Positions 32,686 to 35,718 of a stretch of 64,000 nt of DNA are shown piece after piece. The notes under the pieces were generated by a model. The model worked only from the letters and a program-made list of their open reading frames with translations. It ran no database searches and was not told the DNA's origin. A program made the position numbers and the translations under genes. Each line of letters starts with the position of its first letter. The first letter of the stretch is position 1. The DNA comes from Prochlorococcus marinus XMU1405 (GTDB lineage Bacteria; Cyanobacteriota; Cyanobacteriia; PCC-6307; Cyanobiaceae): assembly GCF_017696275.1 (NCBI RefSeq), contig NZ_JAAORF010000003.1:186001-250000 (forward strand). The letters run 5' to 3'.

Positions 32686-33128
32686 CTTTGCTTATCTAAC
32701 TCTCCTTCATAAATTAATTTAAAAGGATTTTCTCTTACATTTAGAGCAGTTTTAACATTATCTTCAAATTTCTGTTGGATTACATTTACTTCTTTCATTG
32801 GTATGCTTTTCCATAATTTTTTACTTTTCCAATTCACCAATATTAAAGCTTCTTCTTTTTCTTTATCCCAAAATAATTGTCTTCCCAAAAAACCATCTTG
32901 AGAAGATAACCATGGCTCCCATATTTCTTTTTCAGCATTCAACCATGCTGCTTTTAAATCGGCAGGGACTTTAAGTCTTAATTCCTCTATGACCATTTCA
33001 CCTTGATAATTATCCATAGTAAGAGCTTTTAAATTGGGAATATCAAATTGGAAGATTAAAACTACTAAGCATATTAAAACTAAACAAAATCTTTGAAATT
33101 TTTTTTTCAAATTTAAATTTAATTTCAT
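32682..33128 (-). CDS. TIGR03792-family conserved cyanobacterial protein
   Basis: A 148-residue protein with an N-terminal hydrophobic anchor or signal (about residues 12-28). A compact domain follows: [19 protein letters not shown], then [17 protein letters not shown] and [14 protein letters not shown]. This looks like an antibiotic-monooxygenase-type alpha/beta fold and matches the TIGR03792 family as I know it. Function unknown. It overlaps both neighbours by 4 bases, so it is tightly coupled to ispF and larB. Confidence 0.75.
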
Positions 33129-33625
33129 TTTTTCTCAAGTAGTACTACTGAATGGCAACTTATACCCTCTTCTCTTCCTTCTGGACCCAATTTTTCATTA
33201 GTAGTTGCTTTAATACCAATTAAATTTTCATCAATATTTAAGATCTCAGAAATGTTTTTTTTCATTAGTTTTATATGTGGCATCATTTTGGGTCTTTCAG
33301 CGACAAGAACACTATCAATATTATTTATTTCCCAACCATCTTGTCTTATAAAGTCAATTACTTTTGATAACAAAAACAAACTATCAGCATTTTTCCATTT
33401 TTCATCGGATGGGGGGAAATACTTTCCTATGTCTCCCAGCGATAATGCACCCAATAATGCATCCATTATTGAGTGACTTAAAACATCAGCATCACTATGA
33501 CCATCCAATCCTAAATTTTCAGGATGATGCAATTTCACACCTCCAATAATTAAATCTCTATCCTCTACTAATCTGTGAATATCGTATCCATTTCCGATGC
33601 GAAACTTTGGAAAATTATTAGTCAT
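33125..33625 (-). CDS. ispF: 2-C-methyl-D-erythritol 2,4-cyclodiphosphate synthase
   Basis: MEP-pathway enzyme of isoprenoid synthesis. The zinc ligands are visible: Asp15 and His17 in GYDIHRL, and His51 in [27 protein letters not shown] is the CDP-binding region. The length of 166 is standard. Its first codons ([10 protein letters not shown]) are echoed at the end of trmD 1.3 kb away, across a one-gene islet; this is described as a finding. Confidence 0.96.
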
Positions 33626-33643
33626 GCTTCCTAAATTCTCTTA
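33578..33643. repeat. Islet boundary repeat, ispF side
   Basis: Imperfect direct repeat of 34951-35014. It spans the first codons of ispF and the 18 bases upstream of its ATG. On the minus strand it reads AAG AGA ATT TAG, 5 bases, then ATG of ispF, which looks like a former trmD end (Lys-Arg-Ile-stop) tightly joined to ispF. The ispF-coding part is about 77% identical to the other copy, and the outer 9 bases (ATTCTCTTA on the plus strand) are identical. Confidence 0.65.
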
Positions 33644-33792
33644 TCACATAAATCTTACAGTTTAAACCTATAAACACTCCTAAGAAATGATTATTATCTA
33701 AACACTATAGCAAACTTAATAATAAGTTTTTTAAATAACAATAAAAACATCAGCGGTAATATCTATAATTTTTTTTAGATTGTTTGCTAGAA

Positions 33793-34608
33793 ATGAAATT
33801 TATAGATTCTTTGAAGGTAGCAACAAAAGAATTTATAAGAAATTTTGAGGATGATAAAGATAAGGTTCAACCTCCTTATGGAAATCAATATAATTCAAGA
33901 ACCTCCCAAAAAACATCAAACACTATTGCAAATTTAATAATGCAAACAGACAATGATATTTTTGAGAACATTAAAATTTTTGACCAAAAAAGAAGGATTA
34001 AATTTCCTCATGCATTTTCTGCAGATTGGATAGATATGCTTTATTTGATAGGAGTATTAAAATTAACTACTCCAAAAAAAATTGTGGAATTAGGCAGTGG
34101 AGTTAGTACTTGTGCAATTGCAAGTGTTCTTTCCAAATTAAATTATAAAAGTGAATTTATTTCTCTTGATGATTCAAAAGAATGGGGAGACTTAACAGAT
34201 TCATTAATTAATTCATTAATTTCATTTCAAAACTGCACATACAAACAAGTTATTTCCCCTGTAAAAAAATATAAAGTTAACAATATAGATACACTCGGTT
34301 ATGAACATTATCCTCAAGGATTCTGGGATTTTATTTTGATTGATGGTCCACCTCTTGATAAAGCAAATTGCTCATTAGATCCGATAAGATCAAATTCAAT
34401 TACTGACCAAACAATAATTCAAATAGATGGAAGAAACTATAATGTAAAATATTTGTCTGAATGCCTTAAGGTAAGTAAAGATTCTGACTGGAAAAGATAT
34501 AGATTTGCCTACCCCTGCGATGATACTATTTTTATAAATGTCAAAAATAGAAATTTTTCTGAATTCCTTTCATTATTTAAAGGTTCTTTAAATGACTCTC
34601 TGCTTTAA
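33793..34608 (+). CDS. Class I SAM-dependent methyltransferase-like protein (single-gene islet)
   Basis: About 271 residues from the ATG; a TTG three codons upstream at 33784 is an alternative start. A Rossmann SAM motif IVELGSGVSTCAI lies about 100 residues in. FISLDDSKEW is the acidic strand and FWDFILIDGPPL a late strand typical of predicted O-methyltransferases. Substrate unknown. It is on the opposite strand from ispF and trmD, with AT-rich flanks of 158 and 327 bases. It lies between the two imperfect repeats, so it looks like an acquired gene inserted into an older trmD-ispF operon. Confidence 0.65.
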   Translation: MKFIDSLKVATKEFIRNFEDDKDKVQPPYGNQYNSRTSQKTSNTIANLIMQTDNDIFENIKIFDQKRRIKFPHAFSADWIDMLYLIGVLKLTTPKKIVELGSGVSTCAIASVLSKLNYKSEFISLDDSKEWGDLTDSLINSLISFQNCTYKQVISPVKKYKVNNIDTLGYEHYPQGFWDFILIDGPPLDKANCSLDPIRSNSITDQTIIQIDGRNYNVKYLSECLKVSKDSDWKRYRFAYPCDDTIFINVKNRNFSEFLSLFKGSLNDSLL

Positions 34609-34935
34609 AATTTTTGCAGTCTAAAACTTTTATCATAGAAAATTAAATTAATTATCTAAGTAAATAAGCTAAATGATTTTTCTAGTCTAAAAATAATCTT
34701 TATTGATGTAGTTAATTAAACAATCTTACTTTTTAGAATTATATTGCAGATAATATTCAATTATTTTTCTTAATTTAGAAAAAAAATTTTTATTATTTAT
34801 ATTTATTATTTAAATTTTCCCTTTTTAGATAATTATCTGTAACTTTATTGTGATTTGTAATTTCTGGTTCGTTTGAAGAAACTTAATCTGTGACCCATCT
34901 GTAATTTGTATATTACCACAAGAACCCAGTTATAA
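34609..34935. other. AT-rich non-coding flank of the islet
   Basis: A 327-base gap between the convergent methyltransferase gene and trmD, with long A/T runs near 34770-34820. No ORF, tRNA or clear terminator hairpin. The 10-mer TAATCTGTGA near 34886 also occurs near 33569 in early ispF codons, which may be a further ispF remnant or chance. Confidence 0.5.
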
Positions 34936-35718
34936 CTACCAATCAGGGTAAATGTCGTATTCATTACCTATTCTAAATTTCATGAATTGATTATATTCTT
35001 TTATTATTCTCTTACTTTGTGGGGATTTTTTGTAGTTTTCATTTGAAATTAAGTCGCTTCTTCTCTCCAATGTTCTTTCAATACTTTTTCGTTTTCTCCA
35101 TGATTTAATCTCTTCATGATTACCGCTTACTAAAATATCTGGCACTTTCATATCTTTAAAAGTTAACGGCCTCGTATATTGAGGATATTCCAATAAAGAA
35201 GCATTATGACTCTCATCAACTAAGGAGTCTGGATCACCAAGAGTTCCTGGTAATAATCTAGTCAAGCCATTAATTATTGAGATAGCGGGTATTTCACCCC
35301 CAGAAAGTACGTAATCGCCAATCGATATCTCTTCATCAGCTAACCGCCTAATCCTCTCATCAAAACCTTCATATTGACCACAAATAATTATTATTTGATT
35401 CAAAGTGGACCATCTCGCAAGATCCTTTTGCTTTAAGACTTTACCCTGTGGGGTCATCAACAAAGTTTTACTTTTAGGTGATTTTTTAATTGATTCATAT
35501 GCTTTATATATAGGTTCAGGTTTTAGTACCATTCCTGCTCCTCCTCCATAAGGCTTATCATCTACTTGTCTGTAAGAACCTTCACCATATTCTCTCAAAT
35601 CATGTAAATTTAGATCGATCAAATTCTTATCTAAAGCTCTTGTTATAACCCCTAAATTATTTATTAATTCAAAAGCTTTAGGGAACAATGTAATTACATC
35701 AAAATTAAAACTACTCAT
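34936..35718 (-). CDS. trmD: tRNA (guanine-N1)-methyltransferase TrmD with acquired C-terminal tail
   Basis: Methylates G37 of tRNAs to prevent frameshifting. The SPOUT-fold signatures are [35 protein letters not shown] and [10 protein letters not shown], with the trefoil-knot loop intact. The last 22 of 260 residues, after KRI at 236-238, do not look like TrmD. They contain [10 protein letters not shown], nearly the same as the start of IspF. The tail is probably read-through into an ispF remnant after the islet inserted. It starts directly after era ends (0 bases between). Confidence 0.95.
34951..35014. repeat. Islet boundary repeat, trmD side (ispF 5' remnant inside trmD)
   Basis: Partner of the repeat at 33578-33643. 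On the minus strand it encodes the TrmD tail with [11 protein letters not shown], matching Isp[12 protein letters not shown] in 9 of 10 residues over KFRIGN-x-YDI. The place of the ispF ATG is no longer an ATG, and the TAG seen in the other copy is replaced by sense codons. Confidence 0.65.

What the first reader, a model, noticed from the sequence alone, without database searches (positions are those of the whole stretch)
34936..35003. TrmD has lost its stop and carries an IspF-like tail
The last 22 residues of TrmD follow KRI and contain [10 protein letters not shown], against [10 protein letters not shown] near the IspF N-terminus. If the native protein ended at KRI, as the other repeat suggests, TrmD is 238 residues plus a tail from another enzyme's coding sequence, in the original ispF frame. 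This is a natural small chimera at the end of an essential tRNA enzyme.
Basis: partly seen in the sequence, partly recalled or inferred. Interest (0 to 1): 0.55.

Follow-up and report, generated by a model that had tools for sequence, protein, structure and literature searches.

The report
Insertion scar splitting fused TrmD-IspF gene
In many relatives of this ocean Prochlorococcus-like bacterium, a tRNA-modifying enzyme and an isoprenoid enzyme are encoded as one joined gene; here a small piece of mobile DNA appears to have inserted exactly at the joint, and the odd tail on the first enzyme is the scar it left.

Summary
In detail: TrmD (34936-35718, -) ends in 22 residues with [10 protein letters not shown], like the IspF start [10 protein letters not shown]. 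The story runs the other way. In 112 of 149 listed genus genomes ispF lies in a 392-410-codon frame, fused to trmD wherever read; the window is one of 37 with ispF alone. Fused frames appear in ten other genera; 0 of 15 outgroups are fused. Split and fused genes agree up to R-I-G-N on the TrmD side and from G-N on the IspF side, sharing GGTAATG. The last TrmD codons (EYDIYPDW*) and the DNA after them are foreign: 96% identical over 45 nt to an insertion in another genus whose adjoining trmD is 47% identical. Two genomes carry a full-length integrase in this gap, others remnants; five loci show tandem element junctions. Best explanation: the tail is the attL scar of a site-specific, tyrosine-integrase-type insertion that ends TrmD with its own peptide, gives IspF a new start, and leaves cargo (here a methyltransferase-like ORF without a convincing match in 264 other genus genomes). 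The window copy has no integrase and an eroded right end. Activity was not tested.

The parts
34936..35718 (-). trmD, 260 codons; residues 1-238 ordinary TrmD, 239-260 the tail
   Evidence: (TIGR00088 277.7 bits, PRK00026 291 bits)
34963..34983 (-). remnant of the trmD-ispF fusion joint, ATG AAA TTT AGA ATA GGT AAT (MKFRIGN); its ATG is the position that is a start codon in all 45 fused genes counted
34962..34968 (-). attL overlap heptamer GGTAATG (inferred crossover region)
34936..34962 (-). element-encoded end of TrmD, GAA TAC GAC ATT TAC CCT GAT TGG TAG (EYDIYPDW*); its first base is the last base of the heptamer
34836..34935 (-). left end of the insertion with four same-strand TYACARA motifs (34898-34904, 34887-34893, 34854-34860, 34836-34842), possible integrase arm sites (inference)
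33784..34608 (+). cargo ORF, 274 aa (ATG at 33793), class-I methyltransferase-like by eye only (..VELGSGVSTC..); no match in Pfam, NCBIfam or PHROGs; opposite strand to trmD and ispF
33596..33783 (-). right end, eroded: none of the TYACARA motifs left, but the element-type ispF start ATGACTAATAATTTTCCAAAGTTTCGCATC (33596-33625, [10 protein letters not shown]) is kept
33589..33595 (-). attR overlap heptamer GGAAATG inside ispF
33125..33625 (-). ispF, 166 codons, now with its own start
   Evidence: TIGR00151 209.3 bits

Best explanation
The TrmD tail is the left attachment scar (attL) of a small integrative element that inserted by site-specific recombination into a fused trmD-ispF gene. Crossover lies in the 7-bp GGTAATG that codes for G-N of the conserved IspF motif RIGNGYDIH, just before the codons for its Asp and His. 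Upstream of the crossover the tail is the old fusion joint (..MKFRIGN); downstream it is element DNA that adds EYDIYPDW and a stop. At the other end the element supplies an ATG and a short new N-terminus (here [10 protein letters not shown]) that restores a complete ispF. One gene becomes two, with cargo between. Shown by sequence: fusion in relatives, a shared breakpoint, foreign ends conserved across genera, variable cargo, integrase and integrase remnants in this gap elsewhere, tandem junctions. Inferred: that this integrase did the joining, that the TYACARA repeats are its arm sites, that the fused frame makes a bifunctional protein, and that the window copy lost its integrase and right-end motifs after insertion.
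For: IspF in a 392-410-codon frame in 112 of 149 listed genus genomes, alone in 167-193 codons in 37 incl. the window (150 rows listed, best matches first; 214 of 266 genomes matched). Fused frames by length in at least 10 other genera among listed rows, read in sequence for five of them. 0 of 15 same-class outgroup genomes show a fused-length frame; two g49 genomes have the genes adjacent with an in-frame TGA. The window's trmD and ispF have fused genes among their nearest relatives; the TrmD tree needs 24 state changes over 107 loci. Breakpoint: identity to the nearest fused gene is 0.80-0.91 up to the joint, 0.62-0.76 over the next 12 nt, then 0.06-0.34 on the trmD side (n=30); it goes from 0.17-0.41 through 0.60-0.62 to 0.91-0.95 on the ispF side (n=64). 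Left end of the window 96% identical over 45 nt to L132 of another genus, against 47% in the 60 nt before the crossover; means over 144 cross-genus pairs 0.61 and 0.42. TYACARA per kb, forward/reverse, in 58 gaps: left ends 4.40/1.29, right ends 4.25/0.46, cargo 0.71/0.69, trmD 0.64/0.06. Full-length integrase in the gap of G156 and G045 (46-47% identical), fragments in G271 and G299, weakly G357; 11 of 12 aligned family members hit Pfam Phage_integrase at E 0.01 or better, and the G156 protein hits a PHROG integrase at 1e-20. Tandem junctions ..RIGN|[EG]YDxYPDW* in 5 loci, 4 of them starting at an ATG.
Against: No integrase in the window gap, and none found in the window genome with this query. 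Of 56 gaps with ORFs of 80 aa or more only 2 hold a full-length one, so most copies are at best remnants. Most relatives of the integrase lie elsewhere: 3 of the 18 genus genomes with a match (E to 0.001) have it beside trmD, and the next closest protein (G308, 44%) has no trmD or ispF in its held flanks. The window right end lacks the repeats. Of 63 split loci 29 kept a recognisable joint, so some splits may be older or of other origin. The left profile was computed on rows chosen partly for similarity at the joint. Core-arm complementarity is only modestly better in the deduced attP (4.0 of 6; 5.1 of 9) than in fused genes (2.9 of 6; 4.7 of 9) and no better than in attR (3.9; 5.0), so much of it is built into the codons. 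Viral, phage and plasmid collections gave no more than one 23-residue match. Well-supported branches force only 6 state changes on the TrmD tree and 3 on the IspF tree.
Confidence: 0.82

Rival explanations
1. The split allele with its cargo now moves mainly by ordinary homologous recombination between strains (flanking trmD and ispF homology); the site-specific insertion is ancient and no longer active. This would change who moves the DNA, not that the tail is an insertion scar.
For: 54 of 56 gaps with ORFs have no full-length integrase; 8 gaps share the same export-like gene as if inherited; window ends are eroded on the right; fused and split states are mixed on both gene trees.
Against: Left ends are more alike across genera than the trmD directly beside them (best pair 0.96 against 0.47); tandem junctions and integrase remnants at the junction; the window cargo has no convincing match in 264 other genus genomes.
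Confidence: 0.35
2. One reading: TrmD ended at KRI, lost its stop, and captured a piece of ispF.
For: The tail is ispF-like and in frame.
Against: Relatives continue [24 protein letters not shown] into complete IspF (frame lengths); the KRI* upstream of ispF is at chance level.
Confidence: 0.03
3. Split is ancestral in these lineages; the fused gene arises repeatedly by deletion between the TrmD tail and the ispF start.
For: Excision of an inserted element would produce exactly this; outgroups are unfused.
Against: Fused-length frames span at least 10 other genera; a TrmD tail with RIGN before any fusion is unexplained; that part of the tail varies in split genomes while 50 fused rows keep R, G, N, G, Y and D without exception.
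Confidence: 0.08
4. Convergent C-terminus: YPDW is a functional TrmD ending unrelated to ispF or mobile DNA.
For: In 33 tails ending YPDW (32) or YPNW (1), of 64 split tails read, codon positions 1-2 are 97-100% conserved while position 3 of Y, P and D varies; an unrelated small ORF in the window genome also ends YPDW.
Against: DNA identity extends past the stop codon into the non-coding left end; the peptide also follows an element-type start in tandem junctions, away from trmD.
Confidence: 0.06

Closest known systems
Tycheposons of Prochlorococcus (Hackl et al.; original not held, known here only through passages of PMC10872708 and mentions in PMC10187409)
   Same: Cargo-carrying integrative elements of streamlined marine bacteria with a tyrosine recombinase and a fixed target.
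   Different: Described in those passages as bordered by tRNA genes and 4-200 kb; here the target is a protein-coding joint and the trmD-ispF gaps measured are about 0.2-5.7 kb.
Picocyanobacterial integrase of Flamholz et al. (PMC10187409, passages read)
   Same: Unusual tyrosine integrase in variable islands of Prochlorococcus and Synechococcus.
   Different: Described as typically upstream of tRNA-Phe or tRNA-Cys; trmD and ispF are not mentioned in the text. Whether the proteins are the same family was not tested.
Tyrosine-integrase genomic islands that split a gene and restore it (Islander, PMC4383910, start of abstract seen in a listing)
   Same: Target gene split, regenerated by island sequence, displaced fragment marking the other end.
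   Different: Target is the joint of two enzyme domains, not a tRNA gene; both halves stay in use, so the insertion un-fuses a gene instead of leaving one dead fragment.
TrmD (TIGR00088) and IspF (TIGR00151)
   Same: Both proteins exceed the family cut-offs.
   Different: In many relatives they share one frame; in the window they are two genes with element-made ends.

Membership tests
Tyrosine-recombinase integrative element | integrase gene in the element | tested here: not met
   Window copy: the gap holds only the 274-aa ORF and the query found no match in the window genome. Met in G156 and G045 at the same place
Tyrosine-recombinase integrative element | integrase with recombinase catalytic residues (in relatives that have it) | tested here: met
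   12 aligned proteins: invariant R315, K354, R439, H440, Y471 among others (their catalytic role is recalled); 11 of 12 hit Phage_integrase, best 9.2e-12. G156 itself is below the Pfam cut-off (20 of 27.1 bits) but hits a PHROG integrase at 1e-20. No PDB sequence match
Tyrosine-recombinase integrative element | short shared overlap at both ends and in the empty site | tested here: met
   GGTAATG at attL, GGAAATG at attR of the window; GGTAATG in 33 of 50 fused rows
Tyrosine-recombinase integrative element | inverted-repeat core arms | tested here: inconclusive
   6-nt arms: attP 4.0, fused 2.9, attR 3.9, shifted controls 0.5-1.7; 9-nt arms: 5.1, 4.7, 5.0
Tyrosine-recombinase integrative element | excision and integration activity | not testable with these tools
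   needs circles or biochemistry
Tycheposon | integration at a tRNA gene | tested here: not met
   the breakpoint lies inside a fused protein-coding gene
Bifunctional TrmD-IspF fusion | single open frame in relatives | tested here: met
   read in sequence; frame lengths
Bifunctional TrmD-IspF fusion | one fused polypeptide is made | not testable with these tools
   an internal start codon (ATG 40, GTG 4, TTG 1 of 45) could also give free IspF
Integron gene cassette | integron integrase and attC sites | not tested
   considered only; gap ORFs lie in both orientations

The most novel reading that the evidence does not exclude
A family of small mobile elements is tuned to the joint of an essential fused gene: each brings a ready-made C-terminal peptide (YPDW, DPWFDD or DWFWDM type) for the upstream enzyme and a leader and start for the downstream one, so insertion reversibly converts a TrmD-IspF fusion into two free enzymes while loading cargo such as methyltransferases. 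The peptide, kept at protein level, would be a functional cap for TrmD.
Probability: 0.4. Interest if true: 0.75.

Novelty: new variant of a known kind. Interest (0 to 1): 0.6.

Why it matters
It explains an odd protein tail as a recombination scar and exposes a recurrent integration spot inside what is one gene in many sampled Prochlorococcus genomes, giving a handle on how streamlined ocean cyanobacteria take up cargo outside tRNA sites. It also points to a natural, repeated un-fusing of two enzymes generally held essential, a ready comparison of fused and split states, and warns that the split TrmD may be read as a lineage-specific protein feature.

Tried and rejected
Rejected: stop loss at KRI; a homologous copy of the trmD end upstream of ispF (chance level). 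Carriage on viruses or plasmids was looked for and not found: attP pattern in viral contigs 0; G156 integrase in viral contigs 1 locus with a 23-residue match; G045 integrase in phage and plasmid records none. Led nowhere: AlphaFold2 of the cargo from one sequence (mean pLDDT 32.7; no fold search made); PDB profile search with the integrase alignment (0 matches); the second proteins of the G156 and G045 elements had no Pfam match and in PHROGs only one unnamed family at E 0.096, so my early label 'Rep-like' rests only on an H-x-H pattern seen by eye; promoter scan found fewer sites than shuffles (4 against 11.3) and no terminator. One search used a mistaken 33-aa reference for one of its two proteins.

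Selection to keep in mind: the list is sorted by match and cut, so 112 and 37 of 149 lean towards close relatives. 36 split genomes of that list besides the window were fetched or already held; in four of these stretches (L066, L072, L082, L083) trmD was not found. The distant loci were chosen by hand, those mostly because their match ran to the end of the tail, so 33 of 64 YPDW/YPNW endings is not a frequency estimate. L002 duplicates L061: it was dropped but is in the means. L170 and L171 (adjacent genes, no insertion) are in the right-side mean, in the 63 and in the 64. The 50 fused rows include five duplicates; one search counts 45. In one search, 107 loci remained after dropping duplicates and short matches.

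Full report
What is there. TrmD runs 34936-35718 on the minus strand, 260 codons, and ends [26 protein letters not shown]. IspF (33125-33625, -) begins [19 protein letters not shown]. Between them lie 1310 nt holding one 274-aa ORF on the other strand (33784-34608, +). Both enzymes exceed NCBIfam cut-offs and gave one match each in the genome.

Relatives are fused. A search of the genus with IspF matched 214 of 266 genomes. Of 149 genomes in the 150 listed rows (best matches first), 112 have ispF in a frame of 392-410 codons and 37, including the window, have it alone in 167-193 codons (remaining matches were not listed). Wherever such long frames were read, they run from TrmD through [27 protein letters not shown] or the like into complete IspF. 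Across the family, listed rows show fused-length frames in at least ten other genera, five of them read in sequence. None of 15 same-class outgroup genomes shows one, and two g49 genomes have the genes adjacent with an in-frame TGA between them. So fusion is a picocyanobacterial trait that very likely predates the window's split. Named hits of the same protein are Prochlorococcus genomes such as AG-402-N23 and AG-347-K20; the window genome itself is unnamed.

The window was a fused gene. Its TrmD lies nearest to a set that is mostly fused (four of the five nearest rows) and its IspF (first 20 residues left out) has five fused nearest rows, up to 99% identical to a fused one. The TrmD tree needs 24 changes of state over 107 loci and the IspF tree 21, though well-supported branches force only 6 and 3.

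Breakpoints. On the TrmD side, 30 split rows with a recognisable joint match the nearest fused gene at 0.80-0.91 up to RIGN, at 0.62-0.76 over the next 12 nt, then at 0.06-0.34. On the IspF side 64 rows go from 0.17-0.41 through 0.60-0.62 to 0.91-0.95 at the same codons. The rows of the first profile were chosen partly on similarity there; those of the second were not. The shared stretch is GGTAATG (window: GGTAATG and GGAAATG). A test for inverted-repeat core arms was inconclusive.

The foreign ends. The window's 45 nt after the crossover are 96% identical to those of L132, a genome of another genus, while the 60 nt before the crossover are 47% identical; over 144 cross-genus pairs the means are 0.61 and 0.42. 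The identity runs past the stop codon. In 58 gaps both ends are rich in TYACARA on one strand (4.40 and 4.25 per kb against 0.71 in cargo). In the window the left end keeps four such motifs, the right end none: an eroded copy.

Mobile machinery. In G156 a 505-aa integrase starts 76 nt after the trmD stop, and in G045 a 524-aa relative (46-47% identical) lies in the same gap; fragments lie beside trmD in G271 and G299 and a weak one in the gap of G357. These are 2 full-length copies in 56 gaps with ORFs of 80 aa or more. Of the 18 genus genomes with any match, 3 have it beside trmD (G045, G156, G271); the other relatives lie elsewhere, as does the 44%-identical one of G308 as far as its flanks show. 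Of 12 aligned family members 11 match Pfam Phage_integrase; PHROGs calls the G156 protein an integrase at 1e-20. Five loci (L071, L138, L141, L167, L066) contain a joint in which an element-type ispF start runs into the TrmD-type tail (..RIGN|[EG]YDxYPDW*; four of the five start at an ATG), as expected where two elements sit in tandem. Cargo differs from genome to genome, but one methyltransferase-like gene recurs at this site in different genera at 70-74% identity. The window cargo matched, of 265 genus genomes searched, only itself and one weak 35-residue stretch with stops in G180.

The tail under selection. In 33 tails ending YPDW or YPNW, codon positions 1 and 2 of those residues are 97-100% conserved while third positions of Y, P and D are 61-76%, and the upstream K-F-R-I-G is down to 42-64%; in 50 fused rows R, G, N, G, Y and D are invariant and I is 98%. 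The ispF-derived part drifts and the end peptide is kept, apparently as peptide; common descent of the element ends may add to this. Other split genomes end DPWFDD, DDPWLD or DWFWDM, and some show no such motif. An unrelated 46-aa ORF elsewhere in the genome also ends YPDW; the pattern has 61 hits in 52 of 81 genus genomes against 1 for the reversed control (hits not examined one by one).

Mechanism. Best reading: a tyrosine-integrase element inserts at GGTAATG in the IspF motif RIGNGYDIH of the fused gene, closing TrmD with its own peptide and giving IspF a new start. In fused genes the codon seven before the crossover is ATG, GTG or TTG in 45 of 45, so free IspF may already be made from fused genes; this is inference. 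Activity, circles and protein products were not testable here.

Literature. Nine searches of the held library listed no paper whose title or abstract start describes this site or a TrmD-IspF fusion (listings only). Beyond listings I saw passages of PMC10187409, the abstract and passages of PMC2784084 (no mention of trmD or ispF) and passages of PMC10872708. The original tycheposon paper is not held, so it may report the site.

Noticed in passing
L104:1375-1515 (window genome C1, about 337 kb; outside the window): A 46-aa ORF with no Pfam match ends ..GGDFNYPDW*, the same last four residues as the TrmD tail; the YPDW-stop pattern has 61 hits in 52 of 81 genus genomes against 1 for the reversed control, hits not examined one by one.
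   Followed up: partly
L174-L178, L190, L193-L196: Relatives of the integrase (about 30-36% identical) have upstream a gene ending ..HHRKVxNHY* (one copy matched Pfam Flavin_Reduct): a possible second protein-coding integration site.
   Followed up: partly
L064, L067, L070, L094, L098, L165, L166, L168: Eight split genomes carry the same 407-426-aa gene (looks like an SLBB polysaccharide-export protein by eye) between trmD and ispF, about 50-84% identical: perhaps an older, inherited occupant of the site.
   Followed up: no
33700-33723 and 33918-33941: 24-nt direct repeat (92%) linking the eroded right end and the cargo ORF, perhaps a remnant of another copy of the cargo gene.
   Followed up: no
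L170, L171: In two g49 genomes trmD and ispF are adjacent with an in-frame TGA between the frames, a possible pre-fusion state.
   Followed up: no
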